Below, piece by piece: positions 6,841 to 25,207 of a stretch of DNA of 37,320 nt. The stretch is from Aneurinibacillus terranovensis DSM 18919 (GTDB taxonomy: Bacteria; Bacillota; Bacilli; Aneurinibacillales; Aneurinibacillaceae), in assembly GCF_000430625.1 (NCBI RefSeq), contig NZ_AUMJ01000059.1, positions 1-37,320 on the forward strand. The letters are read 5' to 3'. Each line of letters opens with the position of its first letter. The first letter of the stretch is position 1. The notes beneath the pieces were generated by a model that saw only the letters and a program-made list of their open reading frames with translations, did not search any database and was not told the DNA's origin. A program made the translations under genes and the position numbers.

Positions 6841-7056
6841 GGTGAATGGAATGGTTCGTTTTTTATTTTTTGCTTTTTTCCCGCTGCCTAGTTTTATGAA
6901 CAGAGGGGGACGTCTTTCTGTCCGATTGTCTCCCTCTTCGAGCTACCCGGATGTTTCGGACAGGGTCTCCCTGTTTGTTCTAATACGGACAGTTTACGCT
7001 TCCTTGCAAGGAAAGACCCCACAAAAAATAAAACGGACCATTCCATCCCACTCACC
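6841..7056 (-). repeat. Palindromic repeat family, copy 1 (intact core)
   Basis: A 216-bp imperfect palindrome. The left arm GGTGAATGGAATGGTTCG and the reverse complement of the right arm share ATGGAATGGTYCG followed by T-rich DNA. Read on the minus strand, the centre is CTGTCCGA (6963-6956), a 30-nt loop (6955-6926) and TCGGACAG (6925-6918). The outer helix continues after an AAAGAC bulge on the 3' side. The loop starts AACATCCGGGTAGCTC and ends GGGAGACAA. The same loop recurs at 12905-12934 and 25063-25092. It lies between the his promoter and the esterase pseudogene and encodes no convincing protein. Confidence 0.8.
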
Positions 7057-8883: not shown

Positions 8884-9068
8884 GTGGGCAATGGAATGAT
8901 CCGTTTCTTATTTTTTGCTTTCTTTCCTTTACCCAGTGTTTCGTCAAAAAGGGCGTTCAAATTGAAGAAACCATTGTTTCGAGCCGCCTCCAAACGGAAG
9001 GGAAGCACGGCACTCCATGCTTCTCCGCAAGGAAAAACCCGCAAAAGAAACGGATTCGCCGCATCCCT
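8884..9068. repeat. Palindromic repeat family, copy 2 (degenerate core)
   Basis: The outer arms are clear: GGCAATGGAATGATCCGTTTC on the left matches the inverted right end around AAACGGATTCGCCGCATCCC. The inner flank with TTTACCCAGTGTT matches copy 4, and TCCGCAAGGAAAAACC matches the corresponding part of copies 1 and 4. The conserved 30-nt loop is not recognisable; only a GAGC-type fragment near 8980 hints at it. The right end touches the corA stop codon (9067-9069), so the element may act at the corA 3' end. Confidence 0.6.
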
Positions 9069-18795: not shown

Positions 18796-19026
18796 CTATT
18801 TCGTAAGGTTCTTATTTTTTAAAATCTTAAACGCCAGCCATAAACCTGCCAGCCCCGATACCACACCGGTTAAAATGACCGGAAGCGGCTGATAAGCACC
18901 GTCAAATGCCGCCATCATAATTCCAAGTGTGGCAATAAGCCCCACCCATGCATTCAGTGAAAAGCGCGACAAGCCTGCAACGAGAATAAACGGAAGAATA
19001 AGTGCAATGGCATACTTAACAATCAT
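18796..19026 (-). CDS. csbA: CsbA-like small membrane protein
   Basis: A 76-aa protein with two to three membrane helices (about 4-20, 24-42 and 48-68) and a basic tail KILKNKNLTK. Size and hydropathy match B. subtilis CsbA, a sigma-B-controlled protein of unknown biochemical role that is also encoded beside uvrBA. No sigma-B promoter is evident directly upstream. Its ATG overlaps the minJ stop by 4 bases (ATGA), which points to translational coupling with minJ here. Confidence 0.75.
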   Translation of the reverse strand: MIVKYAIALILPFILVAGLSRFSLNAWVGLIATLGIMMAAFDGAYQPLPVILTGVVSGLAGLWLAFKILKNKNLTK

Positions 19027-20327
19027 ATGGACACATCCCTTTCCTGAGCAACTTCCACATGAGTTTCCTGCGGGGGAATCTTCCCTGTTCCACCCAATCT
19101 GTATGTTTTTCTCCGGAACAAGTCTACAATGCTTGCCTGCCCCGGCTTGACATACCGCTGTACAGACGCATCCGGCGCAAGAACAATACCAAGTTCATGG
19201 TGTTCCCCCTGATATAAGGAACGTTGCACATATTTTATATAGCCTTTTTGATTTTTTACTTCCATTTTACAGAAGGCCGATTGCCGCTGCAATGCGGGAT
19301 AAATATCGTCTTTGTCTAAAACGTTAACACCGTTTACTTTAATAATAACATCTCCTGTGACAATCCCCATTTCATCCGCCGGGCTTCCCGGAATGACCGC
19401 CAGAACGCGGACACCGTCTTTCAACTGCACATATAACGGAGAAATTTGCTTCTCCCGCAGCCGTCCGTATATTCGTATCAGTTCGTGCGAAAACAGAGAG
19501 AGAAGTGAGCCAATGAGTGCAAAAACCGGCAAGTATTTCGCCGCGTAGGCGATGATAAACAGGGCAATCCCCCACCAGATTATCTTCTTTCCGGACTGTT
19601 TGGATTTCTCAAAAGGAGGCATTGTAACAGCTACATCCATATAGCCGACCACAGACGGAACAGGGAGCAAACTCAGCACCGCGGAACCGGAATAAAACCA
19701 GGGCACCCAGGAGGGCAAACCTGTGAATGAAAATCCCGCGCCCGTACTGCCGGGCATAAAAATAAACAGGGGGAGCAGCCAGAACTTATTCAACTGGAAC
19801 GCTCCGATCGCTCTCCCGCGTTTACCGGCAATATAAACCGGCGAAGCCCCTTTCTCAGGTTTGCTGTGCATCAACAACCCTTCGACAATATGAAGAACAG
19901 CAACAAGCGCGAGAATCGACGGAACATGCAGAGCGTTTACCCAATCGATTACGGACGGCAAAATCCCTGTTCCACCTATATGGAACCATGGCGCAAAAAA
20001 GGCGAGGATGCCGAGCAAGCCGCCCGCATAGGCAAAGGAAAGAAACCTTACGCTGAACAGAGCGAGAACCACACTGACAATCCAAAGCAAAAGCATTTCT
20101 TGATAGGACAGAGCAACACCAAACGCAATCAGAAGAACGGACGCCCCCAGTCCCCCGATTACCCCGTATCCAATCGAACGCAACAATTCGAGACTGGCTG
20201 TCGTCATGCGCGCATGAAATAATCTGCGCTCGATACCAACCTGTCTGCGGTATAGTAAATACATATAAAAAATAAACACATAGAGTACTGGATTTATAAA
20301 AAATCTCAGAATTGACCAGAAGTCCAT
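19023..20327 (-). CDS. minJ: MinJ-like multi-pass membrane protein with PDZ domain
   Basis: A 434-aa protein with about eight membrane helices in the first 290 residues and a C-terminal PDZ domain (about 295-375, with DEMGIVTGDVIIKVNGV). The segment KRGRAIGAFQLNKFWLLPLF resembles the conserved loop of B. subtilis MinJ, which links DivIVA to MinCD and the flagellar/cell-division machinery. Identification as MinJ rests on topology, length and location beside ctpB and csbA. Other PDZ membrane proteins remain possible. A separate terminator lies between this gene and ctpB on the left-reading strand. Confidence 0.7.
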   Translation of the reverse strand: MDFWSILRFFINPVLYVFIFYMYLLYRRQVGIERRLFHARMTTASLELLRSIGYGVIGGLGASVLLIAFGVALSYQEMLLLWIVSVVLALFSVRFLSFAYAGGLLGILAFFAPWFHIGGTGILPSVIDWVNALHVPSILALVAVLHIVEGLLMHSKPEKGASPVYIAGKRGRAIGAFQLNKFWLLPLFIFMPGSTGAGFSFTGLPSWVPWFYSGSAVLSLLPVPSVVGYMDVAVTMPPFEKSKQSGKKIIWWGIALFIIAYAAKYLPVFALIGSLLSLFSHELIRIYGRLREKQISPLYVQLKDGVRVLAVIPGSPADEMGIVTGDVIIKVNGVNVLDKDDIYPALQRQSAFCKMEVKNQKGYIKYVQRSLYQGEHHELGIVLAPDASVQRYVKPGQASIVDLFRRKTYRLGGTGKIPPQETHVEVAQERDVSI

Positions 20328-20387: not shown

Positions 20388-20427
20388 AAAAAAAAACCAC
20401 GGCGATACATTTGCCGTGGTTTTTTAT
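20388..20427. terminator. Terminator downstream of ctpB
   Basis: AAAAAACCACGGC (20391-20403) and GCCGTGGTTTTTT (20413-20425) form a perfect 13-bp stem with a 9-nt loop, flanked by long A and T runs on both sides. It ends the ftsE-ftsX-M23-ctpB transcript, 38 bp after the ctpB stop. Confidence 0.9.
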
Positions 20428-20463: not shown

Positions 20464-21933
20464 TTATTTTGTAGAATGCGCCAGCACTTGGAGTGCGGCC
20501 TGCAGTTGCAAATCATTTTGCGGTTCACGGATGCGCTTGATAAGAGCATCCTGCAAAGCCTGAGCGGTTTTGCGGTCAACCTTTCCTGTCTGCGGCAGGG
20601 AATGCTGTCCCTGGAAGGTCTTCACAGCCTGTTCGGTTCCGTTATCGAAATATCCGTCCGACCTGTCGGTGGGAAGGGAAAGACCTTTAAGGATAAGCTG
20701 GAGATTCTGTACATCCGGACCGATCATGTCCTTGTGCAGTTCCTTACCGGCTGGAAGCGGTGCTGCGTTGAAATAGTCAGGCTGTTCCACTTTCACATTC
20801 GGGGTAATTCCCTTTTTATGAATCCATGTTCCATCCGGTGTTAACCATTTCGCAATGGTTAGCTTAATTTGACTTTCGTCTTTGAGCGGCAGCGTGTTTT
20901 GCACCGTCCCTTTTCCGAATGTCTGCGTACCAACCACCTTGTATCCGTTATCCTGAAGGGCTCCTGCCAAAATCTCCGCTGCGCTTGCGCTGCCTTTATC
21001 TGCAAGCACCACAATCGGATATTTAGCCTGCTGCAGAGTAGAATGGAACTCTTCCTTCTGCCCGTCACTGTACTGGACCTGTAAAATTGTGCCTTTATTC
21101 GGGACAAGCATTTTCCCTATATCCACTACGGCGTTTAACAGACCACCCGGATTGCCGCGGACGTCGACAATCAGCCCCTGTATCTTTTTCGCTTCCAATT
21201 TCTTAAGTTCGGTCGAAAACTGTTTGGCCGTTTCCTCGGCAAACTGGCTGATTTCAATCTTCCCGAACGTTTTCCCGTCTTTTACGACGGTATCTGAATA
21301 CACGGTTTCAAGCGGAATGTCGTCCCTCACAACCACCACGTTCGTTGGGCTTTGTAGGCCTGTCCGCATAATTTCAAGTTCCGCTTTTGTACCTTTAGGG
21401 CCACGAATTTTCGTTACCGCTTCACTGAGGCTCATGCCATCGAGACTAACGCCGTTTACTTTTAAAATCTGGTCACCGGAACGAAGCCCCGCCTTTTCAG
21501 CAGGAGACCCTTTGTACGGGGAAACAATCGTAATTTTACCGTTTTTAAGCGCAACTTCAGCTCCGATTCCCTGAAAGCTTGATTCCAGGGAGGAGCGGAA
21601 GTCGGTTGCTTCTTTCTTGCTCATATAGGTAGAGAACGGATCATCCAATGCTTTAACCATTCCCTCAACCGCACCGTCAATCAACTTGCTTTTATCGACT
21701 TTCCACAGCGTAGAACTTTGTATGAGCTGGTATGCTTCATACATTTTTTTTATATCCGCACTGGTCTGTGCCGAATTTCCCGCATTCAACATACTGGACA
21801 CAGGAGCTTGCTGCCCCCAGGCCTGTCCATACAGTTTAGCCCCGGCAAGCGTAATCAAACACGTCGAAAAAACAGAGGCGAGAATAATGATAACGAGCGT
21901 TCGACGTTTTATAAACAAAATCTCCAGCACCAC
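20464..21933 (-). CDS. ctpB: CtpB-like S41 carboxyl-terminal processing protease
   Basis: Membrane-anchored serine protease of 489 aa. An N-terminal signal anchor (about 10-32) is followed by a PDZ domain (about 105-190, GSPAEKAGLRSGDQILKVNG). The S41 catalytic domain has the nucleophile Ser in DKGSASAAEILAG and the Lys in TFGKGTVQ, and a C-terminal peptidoglycan-binding domain follows (about 395-465, GPDVQNLQLILKGL). In Bacillus CtpB cleaves SpoIVFA during sporulation, but linkage to ftsEX suggests envelope substrates too. The start is uncertain: GTG at 21933, or a TTG at 21918 behind AAAGGTGG. Confidence 0.92.
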   Translation of the reverse strand: MVLEILFIKRRTLVIIILASVFSTCLITLAGAKLYGQAWGQQAPVSSMLNAGNSAQTSADIKKMYEAYQLIQSSTLWKVDKSKLIDGAVEGMVKALDDPFSTYMSKKEATDFRSSLESSFQGIGAEVALKNGKITIVSPYKGSPAEKAGLRSGDQILKVNGVSLDGMSLSEAVTKIRGPKGTKAELEIMRTGLQSPTNVVVVRDDIPLETVYSDTVVKDGKTFGKIEISQFAEETAKQFSTELKKLEAKKIQGLIVDVRGNPGGLLNAVVDIGKMLVPNKGTILQVQYSDGQKEEFHSTLQQAKYPIVVLADKGSASAAEILAGALQDNGYKVVGTQTFGKGTVQNTLPLKDESQIKLTIAKWLTPDGTWIHKKGITPNVKVEQPDYFNAAPLPAGKELHKDMIGPDVQNLQLILKGLSLPTDRSDGYFDNGTEQAVKTFQGQHSLPQTGKVDRKTAQALQDALIKRIREPQNDLQLQAALQVLAHSTK

Positions 21934-22003
21934 CTTTAAGTAAATCCGACTTCCCTTCTAGTATATGACAGAATAAGGGAGATTATATCTATCAACTACT
22001 GTT

Positions 22004-23209
22004 TTACCGCAAATATTCCATCGGATCAACTTTGGTTCCATTCTTGATGACCGTTAGATGACAGTGCGGACCTGTTGCATATCCGGTCATACCGACCTCT
22101 GCAATTTTTTGCCCGGCTTTCACGATCTGGCCTTCGGAAACCATAATTCCTCCGTTGCGAATGTGTGCATACAGTGTACTTAACCCATTTCCGTGGTAAA
22201 TAATAACCGTATTCCCATACCCGTTAATATAGCCCGTTGAAGCAACCACCCCATCGGCAACTGCACGGATGGTTGTCCCTTCCGGCGCTCCGAAATCAAC
22301 ACCATCGTGGAACTTTTTGGTGTGGAAAACCGGGTGTATACGCCAACCAAACGGTGAAGTAACCGGTGCGCCTGCGACCGGCGGAATAAACTGTCCGCCG
22401 GAATACTGAACGGGCGGTGTGTATCCTCCCCCGGCATTTTGCTCTTGCGCCTGGCGCTGAGCATCAATTTTTTGCTGCAACTGATTCACCAGATCGAGGG
22501 CAGCCTGCTGCTGTTCTGCCTTGGCCTCTTCCAGGTCGCCTTCTTTTGTTTTTAGGTCGGCGAGAAGCTTCTCACGGTTTTTCTTTTGCTCCTGCAGGGT
22601 AGCAACAAGCGTTTGCGCGTCAGCTTCCATTTTCTTTAGATTGTTTAGATTCGTTTCAATTTCTGTTTTTTTCTGTTGAATCAGGTCACGATCCCGTTTG
22701 TTGTCCTCAAGAATTTGCATATCCTGATCGACAATAGCCTGTACCGCATCGAGACGGCTTAAAAAATCAGAGATATCTTTCGAACCCATTAACACATCAA
22801 GGTATGAGATATTTCCATTTTCGTACATGGCAACAACGCGGCTTTTTAAGAGATTGTTGCGCTTGGCGACGCGAAGAACAGCCTGCTGCAGATCATTGGC
22901 GGCTTTTTGCGCCTGAGCGCTTACGTCGTTAATTTTCTGGTTTAAATCGTTCATTTTAGCCTGTGTATCGTTCATTTTCAAATCGATGCTCATGATGTCT
23001 TCTTTTGCATTCTGCTGCTGTTGTTGGACGGCGCTAATCTGGTTTTCAATGGCACTGACCTGTACCTTTTTCGCGGCAACCTGCTTCTTAATCTGTTTGA
23101 TTTGTCTCTGAACATCCGTGACACTATTGGCATACCCGGTTATAGGAACCAGGGAAGTCATCACAACAACAGCCAAAAGCGGTATCATGATTCTCGTTTT
23201 CCTCATCAT
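22004..23209 (-). CDS. M23 murein hydrolase with coiled coil, FtsEX partner (EnvC/PcsB-like)
   Basis: A secreted protein of 400-401 aa. The signal peptide ends near residue 27 (ITGYA). A long coiled coil covers about 30-255, very rich in Gln, Lys and Asp/Glu. A Pro/Gly linker and a C-terminal M23 zinc endopeptidase domain (about 282-400) follow. Zinc-site residues are intact: H301 and D305 in FHDGVDFG, and H382/H384 in GPHCHL. It therefore looks catalytically competent. The ATG pair at 23209/23206 follows AGGGAGG, and the second ATG has better spacing. The gene directly follows ftsX, and such coiled-coil hydrolases are activated by FtsEX in other bacteria. Confidence 0.9.
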   Translation of the reverse strand: MMRKTRIMIPLLAVVVMTSLVPITGYANSVTDVQRQIKQIKKQVAAKKVQVSAIENQISAVQQQQQNAKEDIMSIDLKMNDTQAKMNDLNQKINDVSAQAQKAANDLQQAVLRVAKRNNLLKSRVVAMYENGNISYLDVLMGSKDISDFLSRLDAVQAIVDQDMQILEDNKRDRDLIQQKKTEIETNLNNLKKMEADAQTLVATLQEQKKNREKLLADLKTKEGDLEEAKAEQQQAALDLVNQLQQKIDAQRQAQEQNAGGGYTPPVQYSGGQFIPPVAGAPVTSPFGWRIHPVFHTKKFHDGVDFGAPEGTTIRAVADGVVASTGYINGYGNTVIIYHGNGLSTLYAHIRNGGIMVSEGQIVKAGQKIAEVGMTGYATGPHCHLTVIKNGTKVDPMEYLR

Positions 23210-23248
23210 TTCCTCCCTAAAACTGCTTGATTTATAGATGTGAACGCA

Positions 23249-24145
23249 TTATATGCGTAAGAAACGGCGGACGGACACAATGCTTCCCCATACTCCTATG
23301 AACACACCGATGCCTAACAGAATGAAAGAAATCTGATAGGCAAGAGGATAAAGCGGAAGTAAATCAAGGAAGTAGAGGGATAAATCTTTTTTAATCATCG
23401 TAATTAAAGATTCGTATCCTACCAGAAGCAGAATGATTGGTAGAATCGCGCCCAAAATTCCCATCAATGCACCTTCAACAAAGAAAGGACCCCGAATAAA
23501 TGAATTCGTTGCTCCAACAAGCTTCATAATCTCAATTTCTTTTCGTCGGGCGACGATTGTAAGTTTGATCGTATTGGCGATTAAAAACATTGCTGTAAAC
23601 CCAAGGGCAAGGATAAACACTACAATCACAAACCGGATGACATTCGTTATCGCAAACAATTTGCTCGCTGTCTGTTCCGCATAGTTTACCTTTTTCACTT
23701 CTTTTATCTGTTTAATCGCCTGCGCCACCGCTCCGGTTTTCTGCGGAGAGGTCGCTCTGACGACAAACGCATCCGGCAGCGGGTTCTCTTTCTCCAGACC
23801 CTGGAACAGAGAACTGTTGTCCCCAAAGCTCGCTTTGAATTCCTTCAATCCCTGTTCTTTCGGTACAAAAGTGACTTCCCCGACATCCTTAATCTGCTTT
23901 AACTCACTTTCGACAACTTTTGCCGTCCCGCGGTCGGCCGTCACATCGAGTGACACACGAATCTCCACCTGCTTTTCAACATTGGAAACAAGGTAGTTCA
24001 CATTCATCGCAAGCAGGAGAAAAACACCGAGAATTAGCAGGGTAATCGTAACCGCACTCACAGAAGCAAAAGACATCCAGCCGTTGCGCCCCAGATTACG
24101 GAAGCCCTCTCGCACATGGCGTTTGATAGAGTTACTATTCGTCAT
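23249..24145 (-). CDS. ftsX: FtsX: cell-division ABC transporter-like membrane subunit
   Basis: A 298-aa protein with an N-terminal cytoplasmic helix, TM1 (about 26-50, VTITLLILGVFLLLAMN) and an extracellular domain (about 50-170). Three further helices follow in the FtsX-type permease domain (IRFVIVVFILALGFTAMFLI; GILGAILPIILLLVGY; ISFILLGIGVFIGVWGSI). I chose the ATG at 24145 (MTNSNSIKRHVREGF) because AGAGGGGAA precedes it. It overlaps the end of ftsE by 11 bases. FtsEX transmits ATP hydrolysis to murein hydrolases outside the cell. Confidence 0.95.
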   Translation of the reverse strand: MTNSNSIKRHVREGFRNLGRNGWMSFASVSAVTITLLILGVFLLLAMNVNYLVSNVEKQVEIRVSLDVTADRGTAKVVESELKQIKDVGEVTFVPKEQGLKEFKASFGDNSSLFQGLEKENPLPDAFVVRATSPQKTGAVAQAIKQIKEVKKVNYAEQTASKLFAITNVIRFVIVVFILALGFTAMFLIANTIKLTIVARRKEIEIMKLVGATNSFIRGPFFVEGALMGILGAILPIILLLVGYESLITMIKKDLSLYFLDLLPLYPLAYQISFILLGIGVFIGVWGSIVSVRRFLRI

Positions 24146-24821
24146 AGCCGTATTCCCCTCTCTGTTCATCACGGACAATACGGCCGCCTTCAATGGCGAT
24201 GACGCGCTTGCGCAGGCTGTTTACAATGTCTTTATTGTGTGTAGCCATCACTACGGTTGTCCCCCGGCGGTTAATCTCAAGAAAGATATCCATAATTTCC
24301 TGGGATGTCTCAGGATCGAGGTTCCCTGTCGGCTCATCGGCGATAATAATGCCAGGGTTATTCACAATAGCGCGCGCGATCGCAACACGCTGCTGTTCTC
24401 CGCCTGATAGCTGATCAGGTAAAGAGCGCGCTTTATGCTTCAGACGCACAAGTTCCAATACTTCTGTAACGCGAGGCTTTATAGTCTTCTTCGGCGCTTC
24501 GATAACTTCCATCGCAAAGGCAACATTTTCATAAGCGGTTAATTTCGGAAGAAGCTTAAAGTCCTGGAACACCACCCCGATGCTCCTGCGGACATATGGA
24601 ATTTGCTTCTCCTTCAGGCGGTTGATATGAAACTTATTAAGCACAATTTCCCCTTTGGAGGCCTTCTCTTCACGATACATCAATTTAATAAAGGAAGATT
24701 TACCTGCCCCGCTGGGGCCTACGACGAAGACAAACTCACCGGGTTTAATATGTACGTCAATCGCTTGCAGAGCAATCGTACCATTCGGATATGTCTTCCA
24801 TACATCTTGCATTTCTATCAA
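24135..24821 (-). CDS. ftsE: FtsE: cell-division ATP-binding protein
   Basis: An ABC ATPase of 228 aa, the same length as B. subtilis FtsE, from a TTG start at 24821 (MIEMQDVWKTYPNG) with GGGTGA 5 bp upstream. A longer in-frame reading adds a hydrophobic tail unlike the family. Walker A GPSGAGKSS is at 35-43, the Q-loop is VVFQDFKLLPKL, the signature is LSGGEQQRVAIARA, Walker B is IIIADEPTGNLD, and the switch His is in ATHNKD. It is the first gene of the ftsEX-M23-ctpB operon. Confidence 0.96.
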   Translation of the reverse strand: MIEMQDVWKTYPNGTIALQAIDVHIKPGEFVFVVGPSGAGKSSFIKLMYREEKASKGEIVLNKFHINRLKEKQIPYVRRSIGVVFQDFKLLPKLTAYENVAFAMEVIEAPKKTIKPRVTEVLELVRLKHKARSLPDQLSGGEQQRVAIARAIVNNPGIIIADEPTGNLDPETSQEIMDIFLEINRRGTTVVMATHNKDIVNSLRKRVIAIEGGRIVRDEQRGEYGYDE

Positions 24822-24904: not shown

Positions 24905-24963
24905 CCATTTGTCGTCGAAAAAGCATGTTTCTTGGTAGAATTAACTCAAAAAATTCAAAAGTA

Positions 24964-25207
24964 GGTGCGAATGGAATGGTTCGTTTTTATTTTTTGTAGA
25001 GTCTTTCCTTGCGGAGGAGCGATGACTGTCCGTGTTATGCCAAAAAGGGAGACCCTGTCCGAAACATCTGGGTAGCTCAAAGAAGGAGACAGTCGGACAG
25101 GAAAGACGTCTCCCTTTTTGCCCTAACACTGGGTAACGGAAAGAAAACAAAAAATGAAACCGGATAAGCTTTACAAAAATAAAAAAAGAACCCATCCGTT
25201 GCATACC
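24964..25207 (+). repeat. Palindromic repeat family, copy 4 (intact core, longest)
   Basis: The left arm GGTGCGAATGGAATGGTTCG matches the inverted right arm (25170-25207, ending CATCCGTTGCATACC). The centre is CCTGTCCGA (25054-25062), a 30-nt loop at 25063-25092 (AACATCTGGGTAGCTC, ending AGGAGACAG) and TCGGACAGG (25093-25101). After an AAAGAC bulge the helix continues as GTCTCCCTTTTT against AAAAAGGGAGAC. It lies upstream of the ftsE promoter. It has the same sense as copy 3 and the opposite sense to copy 1. Confidence 0.82.

What the first reader, a model, noticed from the sequence alone, without database searches (positions are those of the whole stretch)
20464..24821. FtsEX linked to its own coiled-coil M23 hydrolase and a CtpB protease
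B. subtilis FtsEX activates CwlO, encoded elsewhere. Here ftsE-ftsX is followed directly by a long-coiled-coil M23 endopeptidase with intact zinc ligands, an arrangement like EnvC/PcsB adaptors but catalytically competent, and then ctpB. The operon suggests one regulated system: FtsEX switches the hydrolase and CtpB may process or remove it, as Ctp proteases trim hydrolases in other bacteria.
Basis: inference. Interest (0 to 1): 0.5.

Follow-up and report, generated by a model that had tools for sequence, protein, structure and literature searches.

The report
FtsEX operon with its M23 hydrolase
Next to the genes of a bacterial cell-wall switch (FtsEX) sits the gene of a long coiled-coil cell-wall cutter with an intact metal site; the pairing looks real and common in this bacterial phylum, so this locus is typical and the textbook Bacillus subtilis case looks like the exception.

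Summary
Confirmed. On the minus strand of an Aneurinibacillus-like genome lie ftsE, ftsX, a coiled-coil M23 protein with all zinc ligands, and a CtpB-type S41 protease, closed by a strong terminator. The arrangement is ordinary: in an ftsX-centred survey (60 genera of the class, 40 further families) 87 of 100 loci encode an M23 protein just after ftsX, 86 of these 87 with intact ligands, and 79 of 100 also have the S41 gene. No CwlO-type protein was found in this genome. The model resembles FtsX-bound EnvC, but EnvC has lost the zinc ligands that this protein keeps. FtsX/M23 couplings favour the published FtsX-EnvC interface (9 of the top 20, 2.1 expected), though a phylogeny-aware test lacks power. 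Best reading: FtsEX directly gates a live M23 endopeptidase through its coiled-coil tip. The CtpB-trimming idea is not supported: in 7 of 13 loci without the M23 gene the S41 gene still follows ftsX. Known kind, apparently uncharacterised variant (live LytM enzyme instead of NlpC/P60, CHAP or dead LytM). Enzyme activity and gating are untested.

The parts
24135..24821 (-). ftsE, ATPase subunit
   Evidence: TIGR02673 above cut-off
23249..24142 (-). ftsX, membrane subunit
   Evidence: NF038347 and PF18075 above cut-off
23774..23860 (-). FtsX X-lobe, residues 95-123 (M = 1), predicted partner-binding part
   Evidence: mapped onto E. coli FtsX 145-171, interface from PMC7668044
22004..23209 (-). 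coiled-coil M23 protein, 401 aa
   Evidence: PF24568 and PF01551 above cut-off; AlphaFold2 model
22436..23131 (-). coiled-coil hairpin, residues 27-258; tip near residue 143
   Evidence: model helices 27-129, 136-141, 146-258; antiparallel couplings
22022..22315 (-). M23 catalytic domain with H301, D305, H349, H382, H384
   Evidence: PF01551 residues 299-396; residues intact in 86 of 87 first M23 proteins after ftsX
20464..21933 (-). CtpB-type S41 protease with PDZ and PG_binding_1 domains
   Evidence: PF22694, PF17820, PF03572, PF01471; 4c2c matched over residues 61-484
20391..20425 (-). terminator-like hairpin closing the operon
   Evidence: 13 pairs, U-rich 3' side, -19.9 kcal/mol, z -4.1, 0 of 200 shuffles as good

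Best explanation
ftsE-ftsX-M23-S41 is a co-transcribed cell-wall remodelling unit. FtsEX works as a mechanotransmitter: ATP cycling by FtsE moves the FtsX extracellular domains, whose X-lobes grip the tip of the long hairpin of the M23 protein, and this exposes or positions the tethered M23 domain so that it cuts peptidoglycan cross-links itself instead of recruiting an amidase. Shown here: gene order, its conservation, intact metal site, EnvC-like fold, no CwlO-type rival found in this genome. Supported but not proven: the FtsX to coiled-coil contact. Inferred from EnvC, PcsB, CwlO and RipC: gating by ATP, and the cellular process (division or elongation). The S41 protease is a conserved neighbour whose substrate is unknown.
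For: M23 gene within 200 nt after ftsX in 49 of 60 class genera and 37 of 40 other families, one more class locus at 662 nt; zinc and catalytic residues complete in 86 of 87 first M23 proteins; the only CC_PcsB protein of the genome is this one; top two Foldseek matches are FtsX-bound EnvC 6tpi_A and 8tzl_E; EnvC has W320, V324, Y368, S399, Y401 where this protein has H301, D305, H349, H382, H384; inter-protein couplings fall on the published interface in 9 of the top 20 and 11 of the top 30 (2.1 and 3.1 expected; circular shifts 0.001 and 0.0003); where M23 is unlinked, 11 of 13 genomes still encode a coiled-coil M23 protein elsewhere.
Against: Independent-contrast test of the strongest coupled pair is not significant (3.3 same way, 1.0 other way of 7 contrasts, median p 0.6) and FtsX 98-E arose once on that tree. 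Without M23 column 129 the interface excess falls to 7 of 20, 10 of 50 and 13 of 100 (10.2 expected). The interface test was run after I had seen the coupling list. The top Foldseek superpositions are loose (rmsd 28.6 and 21.6 A, TM about 0.3): the parts match, not their placement. No clear EnvC-type restraining arm is seen in the model, so how the enzyme is kept off is open; helix-end to active-site couplings are weak (3 of 20, p 0.036; 3 of 40, p 0.18).
Confidence: 0.7

Rival explanations
1. The M23 protein is mainly an EnvC-like activator: its LytM domain recruits and switches on an amidase, and its own zinc site matters little.
For: EnvC-like fold and top structural matches to EnvC; a few relatives have an altered site (L172 and L255).
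Against: The zinc and catalytic residues are complete in 198 of 202 ftsX-linked M23 proteins (the set holds the window's own copy and some duplicates), which points to selection for catalysis.
Confidence: 0.17
2. FtsEX and the M23 enzyme are neighbours without direct contact; FtsEX serves another partner and the M23 enzyme acts on its own.
For: Gene order can persist without contact; residue couplings are not significant once relatedness is allowed for.
Against: No other CC_PcsB protein in the genome and no coiled-coil NlpC/P60 protein among those read; couplings sit on the known interface; genomes without the linked gene keep a CC_PcsB protein elsewhere, 13 of 13.
Confidence: 0.1
3. One reading: CtpB degrades or trims the M23 protein, so that one operon holds switch, enzyme and off-switch. 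This can be true together with the best explanation.
For: S41 in 79 of the 87 surveyed loci with a linked M23 gene; P. aeruginosa CtpA degrades cell wall hydrolases (PMC11021448 and PMC8764530, starts of abstracts in a search listing).
Against: S41 follows ftsX in 7 of 13 loci without an M23 gene there, and 8 of 87 loci have M23 without a full S41 gene in the stretch, two of them cut by its end; the closest characterised relative, B. subtilis CtpB, is known to me from the papers read as a sporulation signalling protease.
Confidence: 0.12

Closest known systems
FtsEX-EnvC (E. coli, V. cholerae)
   Same: FtsX extracellular domain with X-lobe; coiled-coil hairpin with a short tip helix; C-terminal LytM/M23 domain; best structural matches
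   Different: M23 site intact here, lost in EnvC; gene next to ftsX, while E. coli envC lies elsewhere; no clear restraining arm in the model
FtsEX-CwlO (B. subtilis), FtsEX-PcsB (S. pneumoniae), FtsEX-RipC (mycobacteria)
   Same: coiled-coil hydrolase reported to be activated directly by FtsEX (PMC11627006 and PMC7668044, passages); CC_PcsB domain shared with PcsB
   Different: catalytic domain is M23, not NlpC/P60 or CHAP; cwlO is encoded away from ftsEX
FtsX-EnvC of Fusobacterium nucleatum
   Same: ftsX and envC adjacent; FtsX captures EnvC; both deletions block cell separation; described as closer to clostridial than to E. coli proteins (PMC5915739, passages)
   Different: no FtsE homolog at that locus; no S41 gene mentioned; the state of its zinc site was not seen in the passages
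CtpB of B. subtilis
   Same: S41 protease with the same domains, E 1.4e-127 to 4c2c; ctpB also follows ftsEX in B. subtilis (PMC5072692, passage)
   Different: separated from ftsX by the M23 gene here; substrate unknown

Membership tests
FtsEX | FtsE and FtsX family models above cut-off, FtsX extracellular domain | tested here: met
   TIGR02673, NF038347, PF18075
FtsEX | complex of FtsE and FtsX with ATP-driven signalling | not testable with these tools
   needs biochemistry
EnvC (equivalog) | NCBIfam EnvC model above cut-off | tested here: not met
   NF008644 71.1 bits, cut-off 270
EnvC (equivalog) | degenerate zinc site | tested here: not met
   H301, D305, H349, H382, H384 present; EnvC has W320, V324, Y368, S399, Y401
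EnvC (equivalog) | coiled-coil hairpin followed by LytM fold | tested here: met
   model and Foldseek matches 6tpi_A, 8tzl_E
EnvC (equivalog) | restraining arm over the LytM groove | tested here: inconclusive
   helix 146-258 is continuous in the model; couplings weak
CwlO/PcsB/RipC-type FtsEX hydrolases | CC_PcsB coiled coil | tested here: met
   PF24568 73.3 bits, cut-off 27
CwlO/PcsB/RipC-type FtsEX hydrolases | NlpC/P60 or CHAP catalytic domain | tested here: not met
   catalytic domain is M23; PcsB equivalog NF046104 62.5 bits, cut-off 450
CwlO/PcsB/RipC-type FtsEX hydrolases | direct binding to FtsX | tested here: inconclusive
   couplings favour the interface but the phylogeny-aware test lacks power
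M23 endopeptidase | HxxxD and HxH motif plus catalytic histidine | tested here: met
   invariant in 12 of 12
M23 endopeptidase | peptidoglycan cleavage | not testable with these tools
   needs enzyme assay
CtpB | S41 with CtpB N-domain, PDZ and C-terminal PG_binding_1 | tested here: met
   4c2c over residues 61-484
CtpB | sporulation signalling protease | not tested
   role of B. subtilis CtpB from PMC6242693, passages
CtpB | NCBIfam lmo1851-type S41 model above cut-off | tested here: not met
   NF052377 494.1 bits, cut-off 725

The most novel reading that the evidence does not exclude
A live LytM/M23 endopeptidase is the default and ancestral output of FtsEX in Bacillota; the textbook Gram-positive partners (CwlO, PcsB) are lineage-specific replacements of the catalytic domain on the same coiled-coil tip, and EnvC of E. 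coli is a relative that lost catalysis.
Probability: 0.4. Interest if true: 0.6.

Novelty: new variant of a known kind. Interest (0 to 1): 0.38.

Why it matters
Characterised FtsEX outputs are an amidase activator (EnvC) or NlpC/P60 and CHAP enzymes. If the usual partner in this phylum is a directly gated M23 endopeptidase, work on B. subtilis and streptococci has described exceptions, and EnvC's dead LytM domain has a plausible living counterpart in which catalysis and gating can be tested in one polypeptide.

Tried and rejected
Rejected: (1) that the operon is unusual: the survey says it is common. (2) A hidden CwlO: one CC_PcsB protein in the genome; of 8 NlpC/P60 frames, 7 were read and none shows a long coiled coil by eye (no coiled-coil program was run), the eighth (L009) has an open frame of 128 aa, too short. 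Caveat: the PF24568 control does not ring in B. subtilis, so that model alone could miss CwlO. (3) CtpB as the dedicated protease of the M23 protein, on linkage grounds.

Led nowhere or failed: a full-length coupling run was killed; mutual information over full length was led by conserved columns with rare changes; the independent-contrast test lacked events and most of its output was cut; helix end against active-site rim was weak; the NlpC model made matched nothing, so neighbours were not screened for NlpC/P60 there; no Rfam match in the window. A looser S41 count (53 of 60 and 37 of 40) was replaced by one needing 100 bits (49 of 60 and 37 of 40), because PDZ domains alone can match. Ten literature searches listed no paper that I recognised as describing an intact M23 gene after ftsX as the rule in Bacillota; most listed papers were seen as listings only, the library lacks most subscription papers, and PMC3786131 is not held.

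Sampling limits: the 100-locus survey takes one genome for each of 60 of the 62 class genera outside the own family that had an FtsX match, and the first 40 families in handle order outside the class. Genomes without an FtsX match (10 of 111 and 9 of 119) are not in it. The 80 further loci (72 with M23) were picked for the coupling analysis; of the 15 class genomes left out then, 12 belong to families already seen without a linked M23 gene, so 72 of 80 is not a survey figure. The 45 loci were found by M23 similarity; 33 of them have an ftsX match. The 202 pairs include the window's own copy and duplicates; 177 rows remained after redundancy removal and 4 rows with altered ligand columns were dropped, leaving 173.

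Full report
What is there. On the minus strand lie ftsE (24821..24135), ftsX (24142..23249), a 401-aa M23 protein (23209..22004) and a 489-aa S41 protease (21933..20464). The FtsE, FtsX, M23, CC_PcsB, S41 and PG_binding_1 models exceed their curated cut-offs. ftsX starts inside the end of ftsE; 39 nt separate ftsX from the M23 gene and 70 nt the M23 gene from the S41 gene. A hairpin of 13 pairs with a U-rich 3' side follows the S41 gene (-19.9 kcal/mol, z -4.1); the membrane PDZ gene (20327..19023) lies beyond it. Promoter-like matches in the region are not above shuffles by much (14 found, mean 9.2, sd 3.5). No transcript was measured.

Host. The nearest named relative found is Aneurinibacillus sp. 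Ricciae_BoGa-3 (M23 protein 73% identical). In the family, 11 of 11 genomes carry the M23 protein nearly full length (own genome included).

How common. I asked the question from ftsX, not from the M23 gene. FtsX_Gpos was found in 101 of 111 genomes drawn from the class and 110 of 119 drawn from the phylum. Up to 8.7 kb around ftsX were fetched for one genome in each of 60 class genera (own family left out) and 40 families outside the class. An M23 gene follows ftsX in 50 of 60 and 37 of 40, within 200 nt in 49 and 37. M23 plus S41 are found in 45 of 60 and 34 of 40; S41 alone in 4 and 3; M23 alone in 5 and 3 (in two of the class loci, L119 and L128, an S41 frame is cut by the stretch end); neither in 6 and 0. 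Zinc and catalytic residues are complete in 86 of 87 first M23 proteins.

The 13 exceptions. All 13 genomes without a linked M23 gene carry at least one CC_PcsB protein over the cut-off elsewhere. Judged by an M23 profile and motifs, 11 of 13 have a coiled-coil M23 protein with HxGxD and HxH; one (G133) has only an NlpC/P60 and one (G152) only a CHAP protein. So the partner is usually unlinked rather than lost, and the catalytic domain on this coiled coil is exchangeable.

No CwlO here. The genome has one CC_PcsB protein, the one in the window, and eight NlpC/P60 matches, none of which looks like CwlO (limits in Tried and rejected). It has four M23-domain matches and two S41 proteases over the prc cut-off; the C-terminal part of the second S41 protein reads differently by eye and was not scanned.

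Structure. AlphaFold2 on 71 sequences gives mean pLDDT 88.7 and pTM 0.69: helices 27-129 and 146-258 with a short helix 136-141 at the tip, a loop, then the M23 domain. The best Foldseek matches are EnvC bound to FtsX and V. cholerae FtsEX-EnvC; the second look gives 8tzl_E Z 22.5 over 283 residues at 16.4 A and 6tpi_A Z 17.7 over 269 at 27.1 A, so the parts match while their relative placement differs. Long helical hairpins of unrelated proteins also match the coiled coil. Cook et al. describe the EnvC coiled coil as a hairpin whose linker holds a six-residue helix, with FtsX contacts at EnvC 114-128 and 141-160 and FtsX 145-171 plus 112, 114, 117, 173, 175 and 202 (PMC7668044, abstract and passages).

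Coupling. On 173 paired rows (about 140 effective), couplings within the M23 protein trace the hairpin from its tip near 143 out to about residues 36 and 250. Between the proteins the top-20 mean is 1.18 against 0.75-0.90 in 8 re-pairings; re-pairing also removes shared ancestry, so this is no clean control. Mapped onto the published interface, 9 of the top 20 fall in it (2.1 expected), 11 of 30 (3.1), 13 of 50 (5.2), 17 of 100 (10.4) and 31 of 200 (20.8); circular shifts of the interface reach these in fractions 0.001, 0.0003, 0.0036, 0.029 and 0.023. The pair FtsX 67 with M23 126 aligns with the E. coli contact K117-D122; the pair FtsX 150 with M23 126 has the FtsX side of the contact D202-R126, and its commonest residues are E or D with K or R. 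Against this: without M23 column 129 the counts are 7 of 20, 7 of 30, 10 of 50, 13 of 100 and 28 of 200, and independent contrasts for columns 129 and 123 are too few to decide.

Function. The likeliest mechanism is the FtsEX mechanotransmission already proposed for EnvC, PcsB, CwlO and RipC, with the difference that the gated domain is a zinc endopeptidase. What keeps it off is unclear: no restraining arm is evident in the model, and the coupling signal between helix end and active site is weak. Whether it serves division or elongation cannot be told; Fusobacterium mutants of the adjacent ftsX-envC pair fail to separate (PMC5915739, passages), while B. subtilis uses FtsEX-CwlO for elongation (PMC6705773, passages).

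The protease. The S41 protein is a close CtpB relative. It is a common neighbour, but it follows ftsX also where the M23 gene is absent (7 of 13), so linkage gives no special support for trimming of the M23 protein.

Novelty. Each element is known. The combination, FtsEX with an in-operon coiled-coil partner whose M23 site is intact, was not found as a characterised system in the papers I could search (calls listed in Tried and rejected), although genome annotators may well know it. I file it as a variant of the FtsEX-hydrolase kind that is frequent in its phylum.

Noticed in passing
24961-25160 (upstream of ftsE), also 6861-7046 and 8899-8953: A palindromic element of about 200 bp with 55 matching pieces over the genome (40 of 106 first-look candidates were scored) and inverted arms; looks like a dispersed MITE-type repeat, no Rfam match.
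   Followed up: partly
L050, L051 (Laceyella), L055 (Thermoactinomyces), L095, L111, L119, L129, L137, L153: Two to four tandem M23 genes between ftsX and the S41 gene; possibly several hydrolases served by one FtsEX.
   Followed up: no
19023-20327: Multi-TM protein with a C-terminal PDZ domain downstream of the operon; a PDZ protein of this type lies in 49 of 60 and 23 of 40 surveyed ftsX stretches. Its position recalls MinJ of B. subtilis (recalled, not tested).
   Followed up: partly
L172, L255: ftsX-linked M23 proteins whose zinc site is altered, possible independent losses of catalysis as in EnvC; L237 and L288 also differ at one column, which may be misalignment.
   Followed up: no
L021 (G005:C3:503563-504600): A second, unlinked coiled-coil M23 protein (45% identical) in one genome of the family, metal site intact.
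   Followed up: no
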